Positions 52,808 through 54,736 of a stretch of 64,000 bases of DNA are shown here, in pieces. A program made the position numbers and the translations under genes. The stretch comes from Spiroplasma diminutum CUAS-1 (GTDB lineage Bacteria > Bacillota_I > Bacilli_A > Mycoplasmatales > Mycoplasmataceae): the NCBI RefSeq assembly GCF_000439455.1, contig NC_021833.1:682001-746000 (forward strand), given 5' to 3'. The first letter of the stretch is position 1, and each line of letters starts with the position of its first letter. Under the pieces are notes generated by a model. The model ran no database searches, was not told where the DNA came from, and was given only the letters and a program-made list of their open reading frames with translations.

Positions 52808-54736
52808 TTAAATTAAAAATCCTGGATTTTTTAATAAACTTATAAACTCTTTACCAAATAAGATAGCATCTTCTGGTTCTAATTTATTAGAGTTAAATGC
52901 AAAATTAATCTTAATAAAATTTGATAGGTTTCCATCTTCTTTAAAAGAGTTTGAAATTGTTGAAGCATAAATCGAAATTATTGAATCTTTTGAAAGTCCA
53001 AAGTTTGCATTATCAACTCCAAAGTTTGATAAATCAAATAATGAAACATTAATTTTTTCATTTTTAGTTTCAATATTTTTATTTATTTCTCTAGAAATAT
53101 TTAAAATATTTGTATCTTTTTGTACTTTCACAATAGTATCATTTAAGTTAAAACCACGTGATTTAATTAATCTTATAGCTGAATTTGAAGAATTTAATTC
53201 ATTAAATTTATCTAAAGTTTTTGTTAAAGCTTTAACAAAAAATGCATTTAATTCTAATTCTATCCCTTTTTTCTTTAAAGGTTCTGCCATTAAAGTTTGT
53301 AAACTAATTAAAGCTGTTATATCTAATTTATATGAGAAAGAATCAATTTTAACATTATCAATAACTGAATTTTTTTCACTTATCAATGAATTATTAGTTA
53401 AATTAGAAGATTGCTTAATTTTTAAATCTAAATCATTAATTTTATCATTAACTTTTTTCAATAAAGAATTAATTGTTTGAGAATTTTCTTCTTTAGTTTT
53501 TGAAATAAACGATGATAGTTTTTCATCAAATGATTGAATTTTCTCTTCAAACTTTTCTACATTTATTTCTTTTACTGTATTTTCAAAATTATTTTTTAAT
53601 CTTGAACTATATTTATTAATTTTATTATCAATATTTTTAATTTTCTCTTCCAATTCTTCCTTTTGATTTTTGATCTTATAAAATTTAGTTTCTAATTCTT
53701 CACTGTTTTTTAATAAAATATCTATTTTTTCATTTTCTAATTCTGATAAATAATCAAATTTTGGTCCATCTAAAGAAAATTCTTTTTTATCATTTTCAAC
53801 TTTTCTTTCTAATTCCTTTTTTTCCTTGCTAATTTCATCTTTTACTTCTTGAATTATTTCTTTATTTTCCTTTATTTTTTGATCTTCTCTATCACTGTTT
53901 TCTGTAATTAAAATTTCACTTTCTAATTCTCTTCCATCCGCATCAGATGTAAATTTTGATAAGAAGTTTTGATTTGAAACTTTTTCTAATACTTGTGTTT
54001 CTGAAATAACTGGATTATGATCTGAAAAAATCTCTATATCTTTTTCATCTTCATATACTATTGCATGATTAATTGCTAATTCTTCTGTAATTGAGTCTGC
54101 AACAGTTAAAGGTTTGATATCCAAATCTATAATATTAGATTCACTTTTTGAAAATTTTGGTGGTTCAAAAGAATCAAATTCTAATTCGCTTTCTTCAACA
54201 CTTTCTTCATTTTTATATTGATCTAAATTAGTATTTTCTATATCTATATTTATTTCAAAATTATCTTCAATTTTATCTAATGATTCAGTAATTTCTAATT
54301 CTTTATAATATTGATTTTCCAAATCGCTTAAATTTGATAATTCTTCTGTTAAAGAATCTTCAACTTCAATTACAAATTCCTTATCCTCGTTAATTTCATT
54401 AAGTTCTGGCTCATTTATTAATTTTTCTAAATATCCAAATTCATTTAAACCTTCTCTTAAAGTATCATTAATATTTGACGGTTTTTTTAAAAGGTTATTA
54501 ATTTCTTTATCTGAGAAAATATCAAAAACAGTATCTCCGTTAGATACAATAAGTGATTCTATAACGTATATATTTCTTATAACACCTTCAATTGTAGAAC
54601 GAATTTCAAATTTTTCTAATTGAGTTGAAATCACTGCCAAGATTTCATTCCTTTTAACTGGTTGTCCCTCTTTAACAAAAACTTTTTCAACTATTCCTTT
54701 ATATTTTTTTGTATTTTTAAATTTAATTTTCTCCAT
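52808..54736 (-). CDS. E2-like scaffold: degenerate lipoyl domain, coiled coil, dead acyltransferase domain
   Basis: A 642-aa protein with the outline of a dihydrolipoyl acyltransferase (E2) but without its catalytic residues. Residues 10-75 match a biotinyl/lipoyl domain (GIVEKVFVKEGQPVKRNEIL and STIEGVIRNIYV), yet the lipoyl-Lys place in the E-T-D-K turn reads STQLEK, with Leu40 at the Lys position. Residues 80-290 are acidic and low-complexity; about 300-450 form a long coiled coil. From about 470 the 2-oxoacid dehydrogenase catalytic fold is visible: KLDITALISLQTLMAEPLKK, ELELNAFFVKALTKTLDKF, LFDLSNFGVDNANFG. The DHRxxDG catalytic motif is FNSNKLEPED, losing His, Asp and Gly. No PDH genes are nearby. 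Likely structural; function unknown. Confidence 0.7.
   Translation of the reverse strand: MEKIKFKNTKKYKGIVEKVFVKEGQPVKRNEILAVISTQLEKFEIRSTIEGVIRNIYVIESLIVSNGDTVFDIFSDKEINNLLKKPSNINDTLREGLNEFGYLEKLINEPELNEINEDKEFVIEVEDSLTEELSNLSDLENQYYKELEITESLDKIEDNFEINIDIENTNLDQYKNEESVEESELEFDSFEPPKFSKSESNIIDLDIKPLTVADSITEELAINHAIVYEDEKDIEIFSDHNPVISETQVLEKVSNQNFLSKFTSDADGRELESEILITENSDREDQKIKENKEIIQEVKDEISKEKKELERKVENDKKEFSLDGPKFDYLSELENEKIDILLKNSEELETKFYKIKNQKEELEEKIKNIDNKINKYSSRLKNNFENTVKEINVEKFEEKIQSFDEKLSSFISKTKEENSQTINSLLKKVNDKINDLDLKIKQSSNLTNNSLISEKNSVIDNVKIDSFSYKLDITALISLQTLMAEPLKKKGIELELNAFFVKALTKTLDKFNELNSSNSAIRLIKSRGFNLNDTIVKVQKDTNILNISREINKNIETKNEKINVSLFDLSNFGVDNANFGLSKDSIISIYASTISNSFKEDGNLSNFIKINFAFNSNKLEPEDAILFGKEFISLLKNPGFLI

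What the first reader, a model, noticed from the sequence alone, without database searches (positions are those of the whole stretch)
52808..54736. A dead E2: acyltransferase fold turned into a long coiled-coil scaffold
This 642-aa protein keeps the order lipoyl domain - long linker - catalytic domain of dihydrolipoyl acyltransferases, but the lipoyl-Lys position is Leu40 (STQLEK for ETDKA), and the DHRxxDG active motif reads FNSNKLEP. Known: E2 catalytic domains form trimers that build 24- or 60-meric cores, and dead paralogues such as E3BP exist. Inference: here a hollow-core-forming fold may be reused as a structural hub with a central coiled coil of about 150 residues, in a mollicute with little cytoskeleton. 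No PDH genes are near. I know of no described function.
Basis: partly seen in the sequence, partly recalled or inferred. Interest (0 to 1): 0.85.

Follow-up and report, generated by a model that had tools for sequence, protein, structure and literature searches.

The report
Dead E2 enzyme kept by spiroplasmas
The gene makes a protein built like the core subunit (E2) of the pyruvate dehydrogenase machine, but both of its working sites are gone; nearly all helical spiroplasmas keep it, together with a second, newly noticed dead E2, which suggests that an enzyme fold has been recycled for a non-enzymatic and still unknown job.

Summary
The gene (52808-54736, minus strand, 642 aa) encodes a lipoyl-like domain, a long linker and an E2 acyltransferase fold. 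Profile comparison and a predicted fold of the C-terminal domain both match E2 catalytic domains. The lipoyl lysine is Leu40. DHRxxDG reads NSNKLEP, so the catalytic His is Ser616. The losses are ancient: His is absent in 37 of 37 orthologues but present in 26 of 26 active relatives, yet both folded domains stay under purifying selection.

Orthologues occur only in Spiroplasma-type, MreB-bearing genomes and sit directly upstream of yhaM. The genome also holds a second dead E2 (954 aa, His to Gln), found in all 42 MreB-bearing genomes of the family and none of the 18 without MreB; that correlation rests on one loss event. A normal E2 sits in the PDH operon.

'Little cytoskeleton' is wrong for this genome. 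A non-enzymatic oligomeric scaffold is the best reading; a PDH-associated role is the main rival. Function is untested.

The parts
52808..54736 (-). E2L1, the pseudo-E2 gene (642 aa, P0001)
   Evidence: ORF without TGA codons, ATG start, AGGGG upstream; orthologues with open frames across Spiroplasma genomes
54497..54736 (-). lipoyl-like domain, residues 1-80
   Evidence: PF00364 at residues 13-73, E 3.3e-6; alignment with active E2s
54617..54619 (-). Leu40 at the lipoyl-lysine position
   Evidence: Column is Lys in 22 of 22 active E2s and never Lys in 38 orthologues
53372..54496 (-). variable linker, residues 81-455
   Evidence: Linker about 200-575 residues long among orthologues, higher omega than the domains
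54338..54358 (-). linker motif copy 1, DSLTEEL (residues 127-133)
   Evidence: 30 copies in 36 orthologues against 0.42 expected by shuffling; homologous rows are not independent, but single proteins hold up to 3
54077..54097 (-). linker motif copy 2, DSITEEL (residues 214-220)
   Evidence: As above
53579..53746 (-). best heptad-repeat window of the coiled coil, residues 331-386
   Evidence: z 4.8 against shuffles; wider helix 258-462 predicted at low confidence
52811..53371 (-). dead E2 catalytic-type domain, residues 456-642
   Evidence: hhalign to active E2s 97%, PDB profile search, Foldseek and VIA matches to E2 cores
52874..52897 (-). FNSNKLEP in place of the DHRxxDG active motif
   Evidence: Catalytic His column: 26/26 His in active E2s, 0/37 in orthologues
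52811..52828 (-). C-terminal NPGFLI, most conserved stretch of the domain
   Evidence: Pro638 37/37; Asn637, Gly639 and Leu641 36/37 each
51770..52753 (-). yhaM-like gene (OB fold + HD domain), constant downstream partner
   Evidence: PF01336 and PF01966; same order and strand in 36 of 36 mapped loci, gap of 126 bp or less in 32

Best explanation
The protein (E2L1) is a pseudo-E2: a descendant of the dihydrolipoyl acyltransferase of pyruvate dehydrogenase that has lost both the lipoyl lysine and the catalytic histidine, and that is one of two ancient dead E2 paralogues of Spiroplasma. Shown here: the fold, the loss of both sites in all orthologues, purifying selection on the two folded domains, restriction to Spiroplasma-type genomes, and the yhaM linkage. 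Inferred: the C-terminal domain still oligomerises as E2 domains do (at least trimers), using the retained hydrophobic core and the conserved C-terminal NPxxL tail, and so presents several long flexible arms. Each arm carries repeated DS(I/L)TxEL segments and a lipoyl-like barrel whose tip has been reshaped into a conserved T-Q, which would act as docking sites. The protein would thus work as a multivalent, non-enzymatic scaffold serving something specific to Spiroplasma. A role in cell architecture is my first guess for the cargo, because both dead E2s disappear on the same branch as mreB, but that step is weak.
For: Fold. Dead sites: His 0/37 against 26/26, lipoyl Lys 0/38 against 22/22. Selection: omega about 0.02-0.21 for the C domain and mostly 0.03-0.3 for the N domain, against 0.16-0.46 for the linker. 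Conserved positions are core residues and the C-terminal tail, while active-site columns vary. Distribution: all 20 genomes of the genus plus 4 related genera clearly and a fifth (G024) by position; none outside the family in 248 genomes of the order at E 1e-30. Sister relation of the two dead E2s 95/94. Joint loss with mreB on one branch; the locus is otherwise preserved without the gene in the genomes lacking it. Linker motifs.
Against: No direct evidence for oligomerisation, for any partner or for localisation. The joint loss with mreB is a single event; E2L1 was also lost in two lineages that keep mreB (genus g10 and genome G044). Neither dead E2 is among the 16 proteins named in the detergent-resistant internal structure of S. 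eriocheiris (PMC5289999) nor among the ribbon proteins of PMC9582952, so it is not a major part of that ribbon. The linker motif is absent in the citri-type clade and in a few close relatives.
Confidence: 0.45

Rival explanations
1. E2L1 is an accessory subunit or regulator of the pyruvate dehydrogenase complex, as E3BP (protein X) is in eukaryotes: its dead E2 domain would join or sit in the E2 core.
For: It descends from E2. In the citri-type clade it lies in pgm-E2L1-yhaM-nox-lplA-pdhABCD. Dead E2 paralogues with this role are known (PMC10156792). Among genomes that lack PDH, G044 has E2L1 only as a pseudogene, and G020/G021 have neither.
Against: No E3-binding domain was found, while the active E2 has one. 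The lipoyl-domain loop GEGLTEG is lost. PDH works in the mreB-less relatives without E2L1. In G036, G039 and G040 no PDH E1beta or active E2 is found, and in G045 both are decayed, yet E2L1 is intact in all four. That loss is recent, and E2L1 omega among those genomes is somewhat raised (0.36-0.66 for the domains, few substitutions), so constraint after PDH loss is not proven. In the window's own clade the operons are far apart.
Confidence: 0.25
2. E2L1 works with YhaM: it tethers or clusters this 3'-5' exoribonuclease-like protein on an oligomeric scaffold.
For: E2L1-yhaM order and strand are kept in 36 of 36 mapped loci, 32 with 126 bp or less between, across two quite different neighbourhoods.
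Against: yhaM is present in all 60 genomes, including the 21 without an intact E2L1. The neighbourhood survives without E2L1, so the order may only be inherited. No RNA-binding domain was found in E2L1.
Confidence: 0.12
3. It is an active, lipoylated acyltransferase with displaced residues (for example lipoylation on Lys42).
For: Lys42 lies two residues from the expected position; migrated residues occur in some enzymes.
Against: The lipoyl position is never Lys in 38 orthologues and residue 42 is not constantly Lys. The catalytic His column is variable and never His. From general knowledge, lipoyl ligases are strict about the lysine's place in the hairpin. The genome has a complete normal E2.
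Confidence: 0.02
4. It is a decaying duplicate without function.
For: One orthologue (G044) is a pseudogene and the linker changes fast.
Against: Open frames in all other orthologues mapped over a deep genus-wide divergence and low omega in both folded domains.
Confidence: 0.03

Closest known systems
E3-binding protein (E3BP, protein X, PDHX) of eukaryotic pyruvate dehydrogenase
   Same: Paralogue of E2 with lipoyl-type domain, linker and an E2-fold domain lacking the catalytic His; PDHX and the fungal core-binding entry are hit by profile or fold
   Different: No E3-binding domain found, lipoyl lysine gone, longer linker, bacterial, not tied to PDH genes in this clade; the evolutionary origin is separate as far as the tree here shows
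Dihydrolipoyllysine acyltransferase E2 (PDH/OGDH/BCKDH), for example B. stearothermophilus E2p (3duf, 1b5s)
   Same: Domain order and fold of both ends
   Different: Both active residues and the E3/E1-binding domain are missing
Second Spiroplasma dead E2 (E2L2, P0002, 954 aa; G000:C1:812252-815113)
   Same: Lipoyl-like N-terminus, long linker, dead E2 domain; sister in the tree
   Different: Much more conserved E2 domain, His replaced by Gln in 20 of 21, own conserved middle region, other gene neighbourhood
Fibril (Fib) of Spiroplasma
   Same: Precedent in the same genus for a filament protein derived from a metabolic enzyme (nucleosidase fold; from general knowledge)
   Different: Unrelated fold; Fib was not located here

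Membership tests
E2 dihydrolipoyl acyltransferase (enzyme) | E2/CAT fold of the C-terminal domain | tested here: met
   Profile-profile 97%, PDB profile hits, Foldseek E 2.7e-9 and VIA Z 15 on a low-confidence model
E2 dihydrolipoyl acyltransferase (enzyme) | Catalytic His in DHRxxDG | tested here: not met
   Ser616; 0 of 37 orthologues have His, 26 of 26 active E2s do
E2 dihydrolipoyl acyltransferase (enzyme) | Lipoylatable lysine at the hairpin of the lipoyl domain | tested here: not met
   Leu40; 0 of 38 orthologues have Lys there, 22 of 22 active E2s do
E2 dihydrolipoyl acyltransferase (enzyme) | Peripheral subunit (E3/E1) binding domain | tested here: not met
   No PF02817 match in P0001; present in the active E2 P0003
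E2 dihydrolipoyl acyltransferase (enzyme) | Trimer-based core assembly | not testable with these tools
   C-terminal tail and core residues conserved, but no assembly was modelled
E3BP / protein X | E2 paralogue without catalytic His | tested here: met
E3BP / protein X | E3-binding domain | tested here: not met
   No PF02817 match
E3BP / protein X | Part of the PDH complex | tested here: inconclusive
   Next to pdhABCD in one clade, but intact in genomes with lost or decayed PDH, with unclear selection there
Spiroplasma cytoskeletal ribbon component | Found in the isolated internal structure | tested here: inconclusive
   Not in the protein tables of PMC5289999 and PMC9582952; these list stained bands of one species only
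Spiroplasma cytoskeletal ribbon component | Co-occurrence with mreB | tested here: inconclusive
   E2L1 only in mreB-bearing genomes, but missing in three of them; joint absence is one event
Coiled-coil scaffold | Conserved central coiled coil | tested here: not met
   Heptad signal in relatives of the window's species and G024, weak or absent in G009, G025, G010, G004 and the citri-type genomes

The most novel reading that the evidence does not exclude
Spiroplasma turned a duplicated pyruvate dehydrogenase E2 into a pair of non-enzymatic architectural proteins (E2L1 and E2L2) that, together with MreB, are needed for the helical, swimming cell, and that were dropped when the mycoides/entomoplasma lineage lost helicity.
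Probability: 0.2. Interest if true: 0.85.

Novelty: new variant of a known kind. Interest (0 to 1): 0.6.

Why it matters
Dead E2 paralogues are well known only as E3BP inside eukaryotic pyruvate dehydrogenase. A bacterial genus with small genomes that keeps two of them, both without catalytic His and lipoyl lysine and both under selection, shows that the E2 fold can be maintained for something other than acyl transfer. Because they are limited to Spiroplasma-type genomes, they are concrete new candidates for what else spiroplasmas need besides MreB and Fibril. It also warns annotators: PF00198 and lipoyl-domain hits in these genomes are not evidence of a second 2-oxoacid dehydrogenase.

Tried and rejected
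AlphaFold of the full protein with one relative failed (mean pLDDT 36); the domain alone gave a usable but low-confidence model. The Fibril gene could not be located with PF01048 in this genome (only ORFs of 218-240 aa), so co-occurrence with Fib was not tested. Literature searches found no paper on these proteins. I first took survival of E2L1 after PDH loss as decisive against the E3BP rival; the substitution counts and the pseudogene in G044 made it only suggestive. Active-enzyme and junk-gene readings were rejected. A metabolic link to YhaM is not excluded, but YhaM does not depend on E2L1.

Full report
What is there. The ORF at 52808-54736 is on the minus strand and encodes 642 residues (P0001), with a Shine-Dalgarno-like AGGGG before the ATG. 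The genome has 945,296 bases in one contig and reads TGA as Trp in its other genes. From memory the size fits Spiroplasma diminutum; I did not confirm the name.

Homology. Pfam gives a significant Biotin_lipoyl domain at residues 13-73 and only a weak 2-oxoacid_dh hit at 469-521. With orthologues the E2 link becomes clear. A profile of E2L1 proteins aligns over the whole catalytic domain of active E2s (hhalign probability 97%, E 3.8e-11) and hits PDB E2 chains (best 3duf, E 8.7e-10). A profile including the citri-type orthologues finds the active E2s of relatives at E about 1e-20 to 1e-25. A model of residues 450-642, built from two sequences (pTM 0.60, mean pLDDT 51), matches E2 catalytic domains: all 50 listed Foldseek rows are E2-type, best E 2.7e-9, and VIA Z reaches 15.0 over 168 residues at 4.8 A. 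The model is of low confidence, but it agrees with the sequence evidence.

Both active sites are dead, in the whole family. In an alignment of catalytic domains the His of DHRxxDG is present in 26 of 26 active E2s and in 0 of 37 orthologues; here it is Ser616. At the lipoyl hairpin the Lys is present in 22 of 22 active E2s and in 0 of 38 orthologues; here it is Leu40. The residue before it is Gln in 36 of 38 and the pair T-Q is nearly invariant, so the tip has been rebuilt rather than left to drift. The GEGLTEG loop of the lipoyl domain is gone and no E3-binding domain is found.

Not a pseudogene. Pairwise omega (NG86) between orthologues is 0.02-0.21 for the C-terminal domain and mostly 0.03-0.33 for the N-terminal domain (one noisy 0.40), against 0.16-0.46 for the linker. 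The most conserved positions are core residues and the C-terminal tail N-P-G-x-L, whereas columns invariant in active E2s around the active site vary freely.

Distribution and locus. All 20 genomes of the genus carry it, and so do genomes of five further genera in the family (the one of G024 is very diverged and rests on its N-terminus and position). It is missing in genus g10, present only as a pseudogene in G044, and absent from the 18 genomes without real MreB. In 248 genomes of the order no clear copy appeared outside this family (threshold 1e-30). The gene is followed by yhaM (OB + HD) on the same strand in 36 of 36 mapped loci, with 126 bp or less between in 32. There are two frames: metK-cutC-trmFO-E2L1-yhaM in most clades and phoU-pgm-E2L1-yhaM-nox-lplA-pdhABCD in the citri-type clade. 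In genomes without E2L1 the metK/trmFO-yhaM neighbourhood is often otherwise intact. On a YhaM tree the mreB-less genomes form one nested clade (100/97), so mreB, E2L1 and E2L2 were lost on one branch; E2L1 needs two more losses.

A second dead E2. The search for E2 domains in the same genome showed three: a normal E2 in the lplA-pdhABCD operon (P0003), the finding, and a 954-residue protein (P0002) with a lipoyl-like N-terminus, a long middle and a well conserved E2 domain in which DHR reads DQR. Its relatives, called E2L2 here, occur in all 42 mreB-bearing genomes of the family and in none of the 18 others. The His position is Gln in 20 of 21 and Arg in one. In a tree of catalytic domains E2L1 (100/99) and E2L2 (99/98) are each one group and are sisters (95/94), apart from the PDH E2s; both are long branches, so the sister relation is less sure than the two groups. 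The simplest reading is one early E2 duplicate that lost catalysis and then split in two.

The linker. Its length runs from about 200 to 575 residues. Heptad periodicity is strong in the window's protein (residues 331-386, z 4.8), its near relatives and G024, and weak or absent in G009, G025, G010, G004 and the citri-type genomes, some of which have His-rich linkers. A short motif, roughly DS(I/L)T(E/Q/K)EL, recurs one to three times in many Apis-type and some other orthologues: 30 copies against 0.42 expected by shuffling. It is a candidate docking segment; homologous rows are not independent.

How it probably works. The best-supported picture is a non-enzymatic scaffold. The E2-type domain supplies oligomerisation, the linkers supply reach, and the motifs and the remodelled lipoyl-like barrel supply docking. 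Oligomerisation, docking and cargo are inferences. Cell architecture is a guess that rests on the shared distribution with MreB, a single evolutionary event. Against it, neither dead E2 is listed among the 16 proteins of the detergent-insoluble structure of S. eriocheiris (PMC5289999) or among the ribbon proteins of PMC9582952.

The PDH rival. E3BP is a dead E2 paralogue inside the eukaryotic PDH core (PMC10156792), and in one clade E2L1 lies just upstream of the PDH operon. Yet G036, G039 and G040 show no PDH E1beta and no active E2, and in G045 both are decayed, while E2L1 is intact in all four. This loss is recent, E2L1 omega among these genomes is somewhat raised, and G044, which also lacks PDH, has E2L1 as a pseudogene. 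The test therefore lowers the rival without excluding it. For E2L2 the case is better: G044 keeps an intact E2L2 with omega 0.06 in its E2 domain against G045.

Assessment. The kind (a dead E2 paralogue) is known; the variant (bacterial, both sites dead, no E3-binding domain, two paralogues, genus-wide) is new as far as the searched library shows.

Noticed in passing
G000:C1:812252-815113 (L105:7253-10114, minus strand), outside the window: Second dead E2 paralogue of 954 aa (E2L2): DHR reads DQR, lipoyl lysine lost, strongly conserved E2 domain and a conserved middle region; near pta and ackA. In all mreB-bearing genomes of the family.
   Followed up: yes
L158-L164 (Bacilli genomes outside the family): A separate family of stand-alone E2-like proteins of about 295 aa without lipoyl domain, with DER in place of DHR (DERxxDG) and weak PF00198 hits.
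   Followed up: no
window 54818-55546 (minus strand): 242-aa protein without Pfam match between trmFO and the pseudo-E2, kept only in part of the genus; duplicated in tandem in G003.
   Followed up: partly
window 54740-54830 (minus strand): The leader before the pseudo-E2 start folds better than shuffles (z -3.05; hairpin AGTGTTGGGCGACACT just upstream of the Shine-Dalgarno sequence); could be a terminator remnant or a leader structure.
   Followed up: partly
G036, G039, G040, G044, G045 (citri-type genomes): Pyruvate dehydrogenase genes are lost or decaying in these genomes although the neighbouring pgm, E2L1 and yhaM remain in most of them.
   Followed up: partly
window 47233-51287 (plus strand): Two large consecutive lipoprotein-like genes (781 and 569 aa) without Pfam match; relatives of the second keep their place beyond the HIT gene across many genomes of the family.
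   Followed up: no
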